A stretch of 48,814 nt of DNA. Source: a virus. The notes below the pieces were generated by a model, which had not been told where the DNA came from, did no database searches, and worked only from the letters and a program-made list of their open reading frames with translations. Shown piece by piece: positions 7,192 to 10,512 of this stretch. Every line of letters begins with the position of its first letter. The stretch's first letter is position 1. The position numbers and the translations under genes were made by a program. The stretch lies in IMG/VR virus record IMGVR_UViG_3300050821_007486, positions 1 through 48,814 of that record. The stretch is one strand, 5' to 3'.

Positions 7192-7465
7192 TATCTTCGT
7201 CCTTTTCTGGTGGGAACATTGCTTCCCAGTCTTGGGGCGTATATCCTGTCATTAAGAACTCACGTTCATCTTTATCAAGATGAGGTAGCACATCTTGTAT
7301 CAATGATCGCTTATTATGCCATCTATAATATTGTTCTTCTGTCATATTTAATGTGACTTTATTAAACTTTCCTGTCCACATTGAGTATCTTATTACCAAT
7401 GCAGTGCCATCTGGAAAGAACGTTAACCTTTCTGTCTCATCTTTTGATTCTTCAAACTTTGCCAT
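7181..7465 (-). CDS. Hypothetical protein, 94 aa
   Basis: N-terminal strands (LTFFPDGTALVIRY), a central helix-rich part and an acidic tail (PPEKDEDNDG). The ATG overlaps the stop of the large upstream gene (TAATG), so it is translationally coupled. No domain recognised. Confidence 0.7.
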   Translation of the reverse strand: MAKFEESKDETERLTFFPDGTALVIRYSMWTGKFNKVTLNMTEEQYYRWHNKRSLIQDVLPHLDKDEREFLMTGYTPQDWEAMFPPEKDEDNDG

Positions 7466-8490
7466 TATTTATCTCCCTTTACCTTTACATAGCGACTGAT
7501 TACTTCACCAGAGCCTCTGGTGTATGGCTCAACGATCCAATGCTTATCGCCGCGCCTATTTAGATAGCGAGATACCATATGTATGCGTGGGCTCTTTCTT
7601 TCAAATCCTAATGGCTGTCCTTTCTGATGAACAGCTTTATCTCTATTGATATACATAGTCACTACAGTATGGTCCAGCTTCTGTGGCTTATCCATACGCC
7701 TACGGATTTTATTCAAATTTGACATATCAATTTCTTCTAACTCAATGATCTTACGAGATGATGTAAGCAACATTAGGCAAGACCATATCATTATGTACTC
7801 ACCATATACATCCGCATAGAAATTGGCTAAACGACGATCTTTATCATTTTCATATAGTGATAATGTAGGAGCAGGAAGATCCAAAAATTTCCTGCCCCAT
7901 TCGCTCGGTTGATGATAGGCTGTGTTCCAGATACTAAGGAGCGCGTCAAGTTGGATTTTATTGTTCCTCCAGATATGCGCTAAGTTAGCATCCAAGAAAC
8001 TTTTAACGTAACTTGGATGTGTCAATTTGCTATAGTCGAAATCCAGATCGAAGAAAGGAGAGATTGGACTCACATTAGGTGGCTCACCTTTCTTTATAAA
8101 GTGGTTACTCCATACCCAAGTAACCATTCCCTTTCTGCCTTTCTCATCTGTCTCTAGTAAAAATCCAAGACGTGTCGGCAATGGCCTATTAGGATGTTCA
8201 AAGGCATCAATCGAAAACGTTTTTCTCAGTTTCTCGCGTCCAGCTTCTGGCCATTCGATCCACATTCTTGTATATGGAATCTTAAGATATTGCATGGCTT
8301 CTCGCAACACCTTGGGGCGCCCCAATGTAAGCTCCACTGCTGTGTGGATAGTGTTCTCGTCAAACAAGAACCGTGGGCATCCTTTCAGCTTGTCTGTAAG
8401 TTGTGGAAATATACTAATTACAGGATTATTTATCAATCTTCTTTTTCTGGCTTCATAAACAGTTTCTACGATTTGATCCATGAGATACAT
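7465..8490 (-). CDS. Large hypothetical protein behind an attenuator-like leader
   Basis: 341 aa, the largest gene of the leftward cluster. The reading frame is open to 8628, but the start at 8490 is preferred: AAGGAAGAG lies 7 nt upstream, and the N-terminal extension would translate straight through an intrinsic terminator (8515-8550). The C-terminus (about 270-341) has a pattern of DHTVVTMYI, basic IHMVSRYLNRRG and EPYTRGSGE that I associate with an uncharacterised phage family; no catalytic motif was identified. Expression probably depends on read-through of the terminator. Confidence 0.65.
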   Translation of the reverse strand: MYLMDQIVETVYEARKRRLINNPVISIFPQLTDKLKGCPRFLFDENTIHTAVELTLGRPKVLREAMQYLKIPYTRMWIEWPEAGREKLRKTFSIDAFEHPNRPLPTRLGFLLETDEKGRKGMVTWVWSNHFIKKGEPPNVSPISPFFDLDFDYSKLTHPSYVKSFLDANLAHIWRNNKIQLDALLSIWNTAYHQPSEWGRKFLDLPAPTLSLYENDKDRRLANFYADVYGEYIMIWSCLMLLTSSRKIIELEEIDMSNLNKIRRRMDKPQKLDHTVVTMYINRDKAVHQKGQPLGFERKSPRIHMVSRYLNRRGDKHWIVEPYTRGSGEVISRYVKVKGDK

Positions 8491-8514
8491 GACATAGCTC
8501 TTCCTTGGTTGGAG

Positions 8515-8550
8515 AAAAAACCGCCAGGTACGCAATACTAATCCTGGCGG
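8515..8550 (-). terminator. Intrinsic terminator (leftward), possible attenuator
   Basis: On the minus strand: stem CCGCCAGG/CCTGGCGG (8 bp, 8521-8528 and 8543-8550), a 14-nt loop, then six U residues (8515-8520). It lies 25 nt before the start codon of the next gene rather than at an operon end. Confidence 0.85.
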
Positions 8551-8558
8551 CAAGTCTA

Positions 8559-8710
8559 CACCTGGCCTAGCTACCGGGGGGCGGTGAACATCAGCCAGGT
8601 GATCTCTTAATTCACAAAAAGCCATCAAGACGGGGGTTTGCGTTGATGGCTAAGTCTAGCCCAGATAGATTGAACCAACTCTGGGCTTGCTGGCGCTATT
8701 TAAGTGCGCC
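8559..8710 (-). promoter_or_regulatory. Four-hairpin leader upstream of the terminator
   Basis: Four consecutive perfect inverted repeats: GGCGC/GCGCC (8692-8696, 8706-8710), AGCCCAGA/TCTGGGCT (8658-8665, 8680-8687), GCCATCAA/TTGATGGC (8621-8628, 8643-8650) and CACCTGGC/GCCAGGTG (8559-8566, 8594-8601). They follow the stop at 8716 and run into the terminator at 8515-8550. CCAGG/CCTGG arms are shared by the last hairpin and the terminator, so alternative pairing is possible. Confidence 0.8.
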
Positions 8711-9437: not shown

Positions 9438-9578
9438 TTACACTTCAGGTTCGTCGTCTTCAATTTCTTCTGATCGAATTGGATCAGTCTCTTTTTCTTC
9501 TGGCTCAGGCTCCTTCACCTCAGCTTCTTTAGGAGCGCTCAGTTCTTCGTCTTTGTGTTCTTGTTCTGGGTCGCCCAT
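9438..9578 (-). CDS. Very acidic small protein, 46 aa
   Basis: Short ORF with an excellent ribosome site (AGGAGG, 6 nt before the ATG). Nearly half of the residues are Glu or Asp (for example PEPEEKETDP), the composition of DNA-mimic or otherwise disordered proteins. No homology recognised; the DNA-mimic idea is speculation. Confidence 0.65.
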   Translation of the reverse strand: MGDPEQEHKDEELSAPKEAEVKEPEPEEKETDPIRSEEIEDDEPEV

Positions 9579-9596: not shown

Positions 9597-9662
9597 CTGA
9601 TGATCTCATCAGGTGGCGCCTCACGCCACGACTATGGGAATCGCACTCCCATAGTTTCGATC
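9597..9662 (-). promoter_or_regulatory. Three-hairpin element, copy A
   Basis: Stems in plus-strand order: CTGATG/CATCAG; GTGGCG/CGCCAC with loop CCTCA; ACTATGGGA/TCCCATAGT with loop ATCGCAC; then TTTCGATCT. It fills the gap between a stop codon and the next ribosome site in the leftward message. See copies B and C. Confidence 0.8.
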
Positions 9663-9908
9663 TCAATTATTATTTTGAAGTCTACGACGAAGCAATTCAT
9701 TCTGAAGTTGCAATTGTTCCATTTTTAATTTTGTCATTCGTCCTTCAATGAAGCCGTTAAGGAACGCAGCAAGTGGGCCACCACTAGTATTTGGCTGTTG
9801 TGTATAACATGAATAACTTCCATATCCATAAGGATTGCATGTTGTTAGCTGAGCATTAGCTGTGCCCACTGTTACAGCTAATGTAGAAATAATGATAAGC
9901 GTTTTCAT
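9663..9908 (-). CDS. Secreted small protein
   Basis: 81 aa from the ATG at 9908, after AAAGGAAACGGT. Signal peptide MKTLIIISTLAVTVGTANA, then a mature part starting QLTTCNPYG with a cysteine pair, and a C-terminal helix (LKMEQLQLQNELLRRRLQ). Likely periplasmic. Flanked on both sides by copies of the three-hairpin element. Confidence 0.7.
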   Translation of the reverse strand: MKTLIIISTLAVTVGTANAQLTTCNPYGYGSYSCYTQQPNTSGGPLAAFLNGFIEGRMTKLKMEQLQLQNELLRRRLQNNN

Positions 9909-9925
9909 ACCGTTTCCTTTCATTA

Positions 9926-9983
9926 CTGACCTCGTCAGGCGTTGTTTCACAACGCGACAGCCAATCGCACTGACTGTTTCGGT
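9926..9983 (-). promoter_or_regulatory. Three-hairpin element, copy B
   Basis: CTGAC/GTCAG; GCGTTGT/ACAACGC; ACAGcCA/TGaCTGT (one mismatch) with the same 7-nt loop ATCGCAC; then TTTCGGTCT. Stem sequences differ from A and C but pairing is kept. Confidence 0.8.
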
Positions 9984-10097
9984 CTAGTAGCCTAATAATT
10001 CCCAAAATCCTTCCCATATAAGTATTAATGCAACAATCATAGGTATGATACACGCTTGAATTCCCATACGTCCATAATTGTCTAAGTTGCGCTCCAT
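9984..10097 (-). CDS. Tiny membrane protein, 37 aa
   Basis: MERNLDNYGR followed by one transmembrane segment (ACIIPMIVALILIWEGF). It starts 14 nt after the stop of the preceding small membrane gene; the ribosome site is weak, so coupling is likely. A longer frame through here (to 10364) is rejected because two better genes occupy that region in other frames. Confidence 0.5.
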   Translation of the reverse strand: MERNLDNYGRMGIQACIIPMIVALILIWEGFWELLGY

Positions 10098-10111
10098 TTC
10101 TACAAGATTGG

Positions 10112-10246
10112 CTAATGGTGGTAACGGACCAGTGCGCTTGCGAACGCTGCCAATACTATTCCCCACAGTACCCAAGTTGGCGCGCGATACATGAGACGCC
10201 AAATTGCTGCCCGTACTATGTTGTTTACCAGTTGTTGTAAGTTCAT
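10112..10246 (-). CDS. Tiny membrane protein, 44 aa
   Basis: Begins MNLQQLVNNIVRAAIWR (amphipathic, basic) and continues into a transmembrane helix (TWVLWGIVLAAFASALV). GGAG lies 7 nt before the ATG at 10246 and the upstream stop is 2 nt away. This is the usual form of short phage membrane proteins; a holin-like role cannot be excluded. Confidence 0.6.
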   Translation of the reverse strand: MNLQQLVNNIVRAAIWRLMYRAPTWVLWGIVLAAFASALVRYHH

Positions 10247-10248
10247 AA

Positions 10249-10434
10249 TTATTCTCCATGAACTTGCAGTCCTGGTGCTCCACCTTCGCAATTTGGGCAA
10301 AGCCGTAAATGAACATCACAGCTATTTGCACCAAATGTATGTCCACATTCGCACTGAAGAACATGAATAAGAGCGAATGGATGATTTCCTCGCTCTTTGG
10401 TTTTGCGGACTAACCTTTTAGATTTGATTGCCAT
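10249..10434 (-). CDS. Small zinc-ribbon protein
   Basis: 61 aa; basic N-terminus then CECGHTFGANSC and CPNCEGG (about 29-51), a zinc-ribbon-like pattern. Possible nucleic-acid binding. Preceded by copy C of the three-hairpin element and AAAGGAAAC. Confidence 0.7.
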   Translation of the reverse strand: MAIKSKRLVRKTKERGNHPFALIHVLQCECGHTFGANSCDVHLRLCPNCEGGAPGLQVHGE

Positions 10435-10452
10435 TGTAGTTTCCTTTCATTA

Positions 10453-10512
10453 CTGATCTCATCAGGCAGCGCCTCACGCTGCTATGGCAGATCGCACCTG
10501 CCATTTCGATCT
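10453..10512 (-). promoter_or_regulatory. Three-hairpin element, copy C
   Basis: CTGAT/ATCAG; GCAGCG/CGCTGC with loop CCTCA; ATGGCAG/CTGCCAT with loop ATCGCAC; then TTTCGATCT. Compared with copy A, the second and third stems show compensating changes in both arms. Confidence 0.8.

What the first reader, a model, noticed from the sequence alone, without database searches (positions are those of the whole stretch)
9597..10512. Three covarying three-hairpin RNA elements in consecutive gene gaps
Copies at 9597-9662, 9926-9983 and 10453-10512 share layout: three stems in a row, fixed loop ATCGCAC on the third stem, CCTCA on the second stem in two copies, and tail TTTCGRTCT. The stems differ in sequence but stay complementary (GTGGCG/CGCCAC, GCGTTGT/ACAACGC, GCAGCG/CGCTGC; ACTATGGGA/TCCCATAGT versus ATGGCAG/CTGCCAT). 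Compensating change on both arms argues for selected RNA structure. Each lies between a stop codon and the next ribosome site, before genes for an acidic protein, an exported protein and a zinc ribbon. I know no described element of this form.
Basis: partly seen in the sequence, partly recalled or inferred. Interest (0 to 1): 0.9.

Follow-up and report, generated by a model that had tools for sequence, protein, structure and literature searches.

The report
Self-cutting RNAs between phage genes
The three RNA elements are self-cutting hammerhead ribozymes that sit between neighbouring phage genes and probably cut the phage's long messenger RNA into one-gene pieces; the kind of ribozyme is known, but this group is missed by the standard RNA database and carries a second, mutually exclusive hairpin that probably caps the cut end.

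Summary
On the minus strand, that of the flanking genes, each copy is a complete type II hammerhead ribozyme: stem II strand, GAAA, stem III hairpin, UH, stem I hairpin, CUGANGA, stem II strand. A covariance model built only from other phages finds exactly these three places in the window (E 4e-13 to 6e-15; next best 0.09). Scans of viral contigs gave about 475 further distinct copies, up to nine per phage; reversed sequence gave none. Arrays of type II hammerheads in phages have been known since 2011 (PMC3088659), so the element is not of a new kind. Two features differ from the described consensus. Stem I ends in a five-base loop without the known pseudoknot, and Rfam's type II model misses these copies. 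The tail behind stem II is often complementary to the catalytic strand CUGANGA, and the variable base N7 covaries with its partner (p 9e-11; 7e-7 after clustering). That hairpin excludes the active fold. Folding predicts a hammerhead until the tail is transcribed, and a doubly capped 5' end beside a free ribosome site after cleavage, much as in the synthetic insulator RiboJ. Cleavage itself was not tested.

The parts
9602..9662 (-). Hammerhead copy 1 (type II): stem II GATC 9662-9659, GAA(A) 9658-9655, stem III ACTATGGGAGT/ATTCCCATAGT 9655-9645 and 9641-9631, H17 = C 9630, predicted cleavage between 9630 and 9629, stem I 9629-9613, CTGATGA 9612-9606, stem II GATC 9605-9602
   Evidence: model R1 51.0 bits, E 5.6e-15; orthologous copies 20-24 nt before the same acidic gene in L341, L344, L345
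9597..9612 (-). Alternative hairpin of copy 1, CTGATG-AGAT-CATCAG, which uses the catalytic strand and excludes the ribozyme fold
   Evidence: predicted MFE once the tail is present; kept in four orthologues
9928..9984 (-). Hammerhead copy 2: stem II GACC 9984-9981 / GGTC 9931-9928, stem III loop GTGCGAT, H17 = C 9956, predicted cleavage between 9956 and 9955, stem I 9955-9939, CTGACGA 9938-9932
   Evidence: model R1 46.1 bits, E 2.8e-13
9926..9938 (-). Alternative hairpin of copy 2, CTGAC-GAG-GTCAG
   Evidence: C-G in place of U-A of copies 1 and 3
10455..10511 (-). Hammerhead copy 3: stem II GATC 10511-10508 / 10458-10455, H17 = A 10483, predicted cleavage between 10483 and 10482, stem I 10482-10466, CTGATGA 10465-10459
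   Evidence: model R1 45.7 bits, E 3.9e-13
10453..10465 (-). Alternative hairpin of copy 3, CTGAT-GAG-ATCAG
9438..9578 (-). Gene after copy 1: small acidic protein (46 aa), start 23 nt after the ribozyme, Shine-Dalgarno AAGGAGG
   Evidence: orthologues at 46-67% identity behind a hammerhead in relatives
9663..9908 (-). Gene after copy 2: 81-aa protein with an N-terminal signal-like segment; its stop codon TGA abuts copy 1
10249..10434 (-). Gene after copy 3: 61-aa protein with CxC...CxxC (zinc-ribbon-like)
   Evidence: no Pfam hit

Best explanation
Three type II hammerhead ribozymes of a pentaloop subfamily, placed between genes of an early phage operon. Step 1: RNA polymerase makes a long transcript; stem III and stem I form, then CUGANGA and the 3' strand of stem II emerge and the hammerhead closes (core and fold shown by sequence and by RNAfold). 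Step 2: the RNA cuts itself at 9630/9629, 9956/9955 and 10483/10482 (inferred from the class; not tested). Step 3: the upstream mRNA keeps the stem III hairpin at its 3' end; the downstream mRNA starts with the stem I hairpin, and its freed CUGANGA strand pairs with the tail (RUCAG) into a second hairpin directly next to stem I (pairing supported by covariation across phages; timing inferred). Step 4: this doubly capped 5' end cannot re-form the ribozyme, is probably more stable, and leaves the Shine-Dalgarno site single-stranded 19-23 nt before the next start codon, so that each gene gets its own standard leader (inferred). It works like the synthetic insulator RiboJ, a hammerhead followed by a hairpin before the ribosome site.
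For: Complete core in all three copies. Covariance model without window sequence: exactly three hits. About 475 further copies in viral contigs, 0 on reversed sequence of the same loci at that stage. Covariation of stems I, II and III: 12 of 15 pairs with changes on both sides, 173 such cells against 42 in shuffles (pairing itself was a selection criterion, the variety of pairs was not). Context: 427 of 447 have a same-strand ORF ending just upstream and 409 of 447 a start with SD-like site within 90 nt, median 24 nt (random places 266 and 218 of 470); stop codon within -2..0 nt of stem II in 225 of 451. Alternative hairpin: N7 against its partner in the tail U-A 40, C-G 22, U-G 8, C-A 1, Fisher p 9e-11, p 7e-7 with one per flank cluster, helix of 5 or more pairs in 39% of clusters against 10% with shuffled tails. 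All three window copies are predicted hammerheads without the tail and three hairpins with it; 149 of 370 relatives switch likewise. Precedent: type II hammerhead arrays in phages cleave in vitro and in E. coli (PMC3088659); RiboJ leaves a hairpin before the RBS and raises expression (PMC6206723).
Against: No cleavage, RNA ends or expression data exist for this phage. The tail hairpin is not universal: about 40-50% of relatives have it, one copy in relative L341 lacks it, and the Streptomyces phage copies lack it. Copy L344:5770 has a U inserted next to the core and may be inactive although its hairpin is kept. RNAfold ignores the tertiary contacts of hammerheads, and its energy differences are small (0.4 to 3.9 kcal/mol).
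Confidence: 0.8

Rival explanations
1. Same ribozymes, but the tail hairpin is mainly an OFF switch or timer: if the polymerase passes the tail before cleavage, CUGANGA is sequestered and the transcript stays polycistronic, so cleavage depends on transcription speed, temperature or ribosomes that terminate at the adjoining stop codon.
For: The hairpin uses the catalytic strand and is the predicted MFE of the uncut RNA in all three copies and in 149 of 370 relatives; the stop codon of the upstream gene abuts stem II, so a terminating ribosome would cover it.
Against: Natural hammerheads usually cut within seconds to minutes (class knowledge), and the predicted preference for the hairpin is small, so cleavage should still drain the equilibrium. 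Stop-codon adjacency may only reflect compact genomes and the conserved A before stem II.
Confidence: 0.3
2. The tail complementarity is a by-product of a tertiary contact (tail or A before stem II with loop I) and not a hairpin.
For: The base before stem II is A in 444 of 478 copies, also where no stop codon explains it (162 of 195), so the distal end of stem II seems to take part in a contact; type II hammerheads are known to use a loop I-tail pseudoknot (PMC3088659).
Against: The covarying partner is N7 of CUGANGA, not loop I; the hairpin survives insertions (ATCAG, CATCAG, GTCAG at varying distance). Pseudoknots of 4 or more pairs occur in 38 of 61 copies with long loops but only 15 of 219 pentaloop copies.
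Confidence: 0.1
3. A structured RNA that is not catalytic, such as a protein-binding leader or RNase III site.
For: Hairpins before ribosome sites often act so; one relative (L344:5770) has a damaged core with the hairpin kept.
Against: All catalytic nucleotides are kept in hundreds of copies while the stems change freely; a non-catalytic hairpin would not keep CUGANGA, GAAA and UH.
Confidence: 0.03
4. A DNA-level feature: palindromic protein-binding sites or terminators on the plus strand.
For: Inverted repeats exist, and one weak terminator-like match lies at 9926-9938 on the plus strand.
Against: Terminator-like matches do not exceed shuffles (3 against 2.3); both flanking genes are on the minus strand; asymmetric core nucleotides are conserved; U-G pairs are tolerated more than C-A.
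Confidence: 0.02

Closest known systems
Type II hammerhead ribozyme (Perreault et al. 2011, PMC3088659; Rfam RF02276)
   Same: Same strand order, CUGANGA, GAAA, UH, three stems, stem II open; several copies flanking single genes in phage DNA.
   Different: Stem I of 6 bp with a 5-nt loop and no loop I-tail pseudoknot; the tail often pairs with the catalytic strand; RF02276 does not reach its cut-off on them, though it works on pseudoknot-class copies.
RiboJ (sTRSV hammerhead plus 23-nt hairpin, synthetic insulator; PMC6206723)
   Same: Cleavage leaves a hairpin directly before the ribosome site and standardises the 5' end.
   Different: RiboJ is synthetic, built on the sTRSV hammerhead with a separate hairpin; here the hairpin is made from the catalytic strand itself and the element sits inside natural phage operons.
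Hammerheads of viroids and satellite RNAs (from own knowledge)
   Same: Catalytic strands are held in an alternative inactive fold outside the cleavage step.
   Different: There the alternative fold belongs to the long rod of a circular replicating RNA; here it is a local hairpin in mRNA.

Membership tests
Hammerhead ribozyme (class), type II permutation | Core CUGANGA, GAAA, A15.1-U16.1 pair, H17 not G | tested here: met
   All three copies; H17 = C, C, A
Hammerhead ribozyme (class), type II permutation | Three helices; stems I and III closed by loops, stem II open | tested here: met
   stem II GATC/GATC, GACC/GGTC, GATC/GATC
Hammerhead ribozyme (class), type II permutation | Self-cleavage 3' of H17 with 5'-OH and 2',3'-cyclic phosphate ends | not testable with these tools
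   Needs RNA
Rfam RF02276 Hammerhead_II / published type II consensus | Gathering score of 37 bits | tested here: not met
   No match in the window even at E 10; pentaloop relatives 24-34 bits; positive control 16 hits at or above cut-off in pseudoknot-class loci
Rfam RF02276 Hammerhead_II / published type II consensus | Pseudoknot of 4 or more pairs between loop I and the 3' tail (frequent, not universal, in the published set) | tested here: not met
   Loop I TGAGG/TGAAA/TGAGG against tails ATCAGTAACC, AGTAATG: at most 3 pairs by inspection; as a class 15 of 219 pentaloop copies against 38 of 61 long-loop copies
RiboJ-like insulator (works like, not a member) | Cleavage product starts with hairpins and a free ribosome site | tested here: met
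   By prediction only: fold of the 3' product
RiboJ-like insulator (works like, not a member) | Raises or insulates expression of the downstream gene | not testable with these tools
   Needs a reporter assay

The most novel reading that the evidence does not exclude
Phages widely use a pentaloop type II hammerhead subfamily with a built-in refolding switch: the catalytic strand is reused after the cut as half of a 5' capping hairpin, so that one 60-nt element cuts the mRNA, makes the cut irreversible, protects both new ends and exposes the next ribosome site, with the upstream stop codon fused to stem II.
Probability: 0.5. Interest if true: 0.72.

Novelty: new variant of a known kind. Interest (0 to 1): 0.55.

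Why it matters
What bacterial and phage hammerheads are for has been open since 2011. A hairpin that covaries with the catalytic strand is direct evolutionary evidence about the life of the cleaved product, namely that the 5' end of the downstream mRNA is under selection. It makes the mRNA-processing hypothesis testable with two-base compensatory mutants. The subfamily also lies below Rfam's threshold, so hundreds of phage ribozymes go unannotated, and it is a natural counterpart of a widely used synthetic-biology part.

Tried and rejected
Rfam at gathering and at E up to 10 on the region: nothing; this could have suggested an undescribed element, but the control with pseudoknot-class copies shows that the model is simply tuned to another subfamily. 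DNA similarity to named phages: none. Named phages with a related capsid or terminase (PdC23, Chronis, QDWS, YenM_29.18, ctsTn925) and PaP3: no copy by the scanner or the model. The published phage PaP3 ribozyme has a variant core that my strict core pattern would miss, so that negative says little. Pattern CGAAA-N-CTGANGAGRTC and the GTGCGAT-loop pattern mostly returned chance matches that do not fold. Host genomes: of 116 stretches with the stem II pattern only one folds, the others score 17-23 bits (20 loci). Terminator and promoter scans: not above shuffles. Loop I-tail pseudoknot as explanation of the tail: rejected for the pentaloop class.

Full report
What is there. The window is a virus record of 48,814 bases with head, portal and tail-sheath genes, so a contractile-tailed phage; its major capsid protein is 50-62% identical to those of Pantoea phage PdC23, Klebsiella phage Chronis and others. 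The finding lies in a minus-strand cluster of small genes. Read on that strand, each element is GAYC-GAAA-[stem III hairpin, loop GTGCGAT]-UH-[stem I hairpin, loop TGAGG or TGAAA]-CTGAYGA-GRTC. This is the hammerhead ribozyme in type II order, with stem II open. All core positions are present and the predicted cleavage sites are 9630/9629, 9956/9955 and 10483/10482.

Is it more than chance. A structure-based scanner (core plus perfect stems) finds only these three in the window. Over the loci held at that stage (3.19 Mb) it found 153 copies, and none on the reversed sequences. A covariance model (R1) from 46 copies of other phages, none from the window, finds the three with 45.7, 46.1 and 51.0 bits and nothing else above 12.6 bits. 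Pattern-matched chance places in host genomes reach 17-23 bits. In the 46-sequence alignment 12 of 15 pairs show changes on both sides (173 cells against 42 in shuffles). Because pairing was required when the copies were collected, the 100% pairing there is not evidence, but the variety of pairs is.

Relatives. Seven viral-contig scans and their flanks gave 478 distinct copies, the three of the window included. Host genomes are nearly free of them: 1 of 116 pattern stretches folds. Five relatives of this phage (78-79% identity in a 387-aa protein) include L341 with seven copies and L344, L345 and L347 with three each, all on the strand of the small genes. Copy 1 is conserved in place: the acidic gene behind it has orthologues behind a hammerhead in L341, L344 and L345, 20-24 nt downstream, although the stems have been replaced. 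The other window copies stand before genes not found in these relatives.

Placement. Of 447 copies with enough flank, 427 have a same-strand open frame ending just upstream and 409 a start codon with an SD-like site within 90 nt (median 24); random places give 266 and 218 of 470. In 225 of 451 the stop codon of the upstream frame abuts or overlaps stem II, most often as TA[G] with G as the first base of stem II. The base before stem II is A in 444 of 478, also where no stop codon is adjacent (162 of 195), so that A probably has a structural role and the stop codon is built onto it.

Two subclasses. Most copies have a 6-bp stem I with a 5-nt loop beginning with U (314 of 478), a 4-bp stem II and no pseudoknot. 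A minority has a loop I of 7 or more bases, and there the published loop I-tail pseudoknot is common (38 of 61, 13.7 expected). Rfam's RF02276 recognises the second subclass (16 hits at or above cut-off in L434, L419 and L428) but none of the pentaloop copies in ten loci (24-34 bits, cut-off 37) and nothing in the window.

The second structure. In the three window copies the bases behind stem II complete a hairpin CTGAY-N-RTCAG that uses the catalytic strand. To test it I used only copies found without any condition on the tail (370). TCAG occurs in 79 tails where 20 are expected and is the most frequent of the 24 permutations. The base before TCAG, when outside stem II, pairs with N7 of CUGANGA: U-A 40, C-G 22, U-G 8, C-A 1, others 8 (Fisher p 9e-11). 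With one copy per cluster of homologous flanks it is U-A 30, C-G 15, U-G 8, C-A 1 (p 7e-7), and a helix of 5 or more pairs from C3 occurs in 39% of clusters against 10% with shuffled tails. Several phages hold both the U-A and the C-G version (L341, L396, L399, L426, L655, L748). In the four orthologues of copy 1 the hairpin survives an ATC or GTC insertion, a one-base insertion and U-A, U-G and C-G changes. N7 is the one variable base of the core strand, so this covariation is not imposed by the ribozyme. It is not universal: many GTCC-type copies, L341:7662 and the Streptomyces phages lack it.

How it most likely works. RNAfold gives the hammerhead as the best fold of each window copy when the transcript ends at stem II, and three hairpins in a row once the tail is added. 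The same switch is predicted for 149 of 370 relatives; with shuffled tails the downstream hairpin appears in 68. The cleaved 3' product is predicted as stem I hairpin plus the CUGAY hairpin, adjacent to each other, with the Shine-Dalgarno site mostly free. I infer a time order: fold, cut, refold. The upstream mRNA would end in the stem III hairpin, the downstream mRNA would begin with two hairpins and could no longer form the ribozyme. This matches how RiboJ is described: cleavage removes the upstream leader and a hairpin remains before the ribosome site, with higher mRNA and protein levels (PMC6206723). Shown: core, covariation, placement, mutually exclusive pairing. Inferred: cleavage, timing, mRNA stability, translation.

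Against what is known. Perreault et al. (PMC3088659) described type II hammerheads, their arrays around phage genes, cleavage in vitro and in E. coli, the pseudoknot, and the idea that phage transcripts are cut into gene-length mRNAs. A later paper repeats that bacterial hammerheads cluster near genes of Mu-like phages for reasons unknown (PMC10085705). The identity of the element and its likely role are therefore known kinds. In nine searches of the open library I found no description of the pentaloop subfamily or of a tail hairpin that takes up the catalytic strand, but subscription papers were not searchable, so novelty of these two points is provisional.

Noticed in passing
L344:5770-5830 (and the same copy in L347): Orthologue of copy 1 with an extra U between CUGACGA and GGUC: the ribozyme core is probably impaired while the tail hairpin CTGAC-GATG-GTCAG is intact, a natural case that could separate the two functions.
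   Followed up: partly
L434 and L419 (viral contigs): Phage contigs with seven and nine Rfam-level type II hammerheads of the pseudoknot class, L419 within about 6 kb.
   Followed up: partly
L646 record (125,690 bases): A large phage with at least nine pentaloop hammerheads, several tails reading GTTGAAAG or ATTGAAAG instead of RTCAG.
   Followed up: no
window 7465-8628 (-): 387-aa protein conserved in relatives at 43-79% identity but without a PHROGs or Pfam match; function unknown.
   Followed up: no
L770, L771 (Streptomyces phages Gibson and Wentworth): Culturable phages with four hammerheads each by the model in GC-rich early genes, without the tail hairpin; the public annotation shows no ribozyme.
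   Followed up: partly
all loci: The base directly before stem II is A in 444 of 478 copies and is often part of the upstream stop codon, with TAG sharing its G with stem II.
   Followed up: partly
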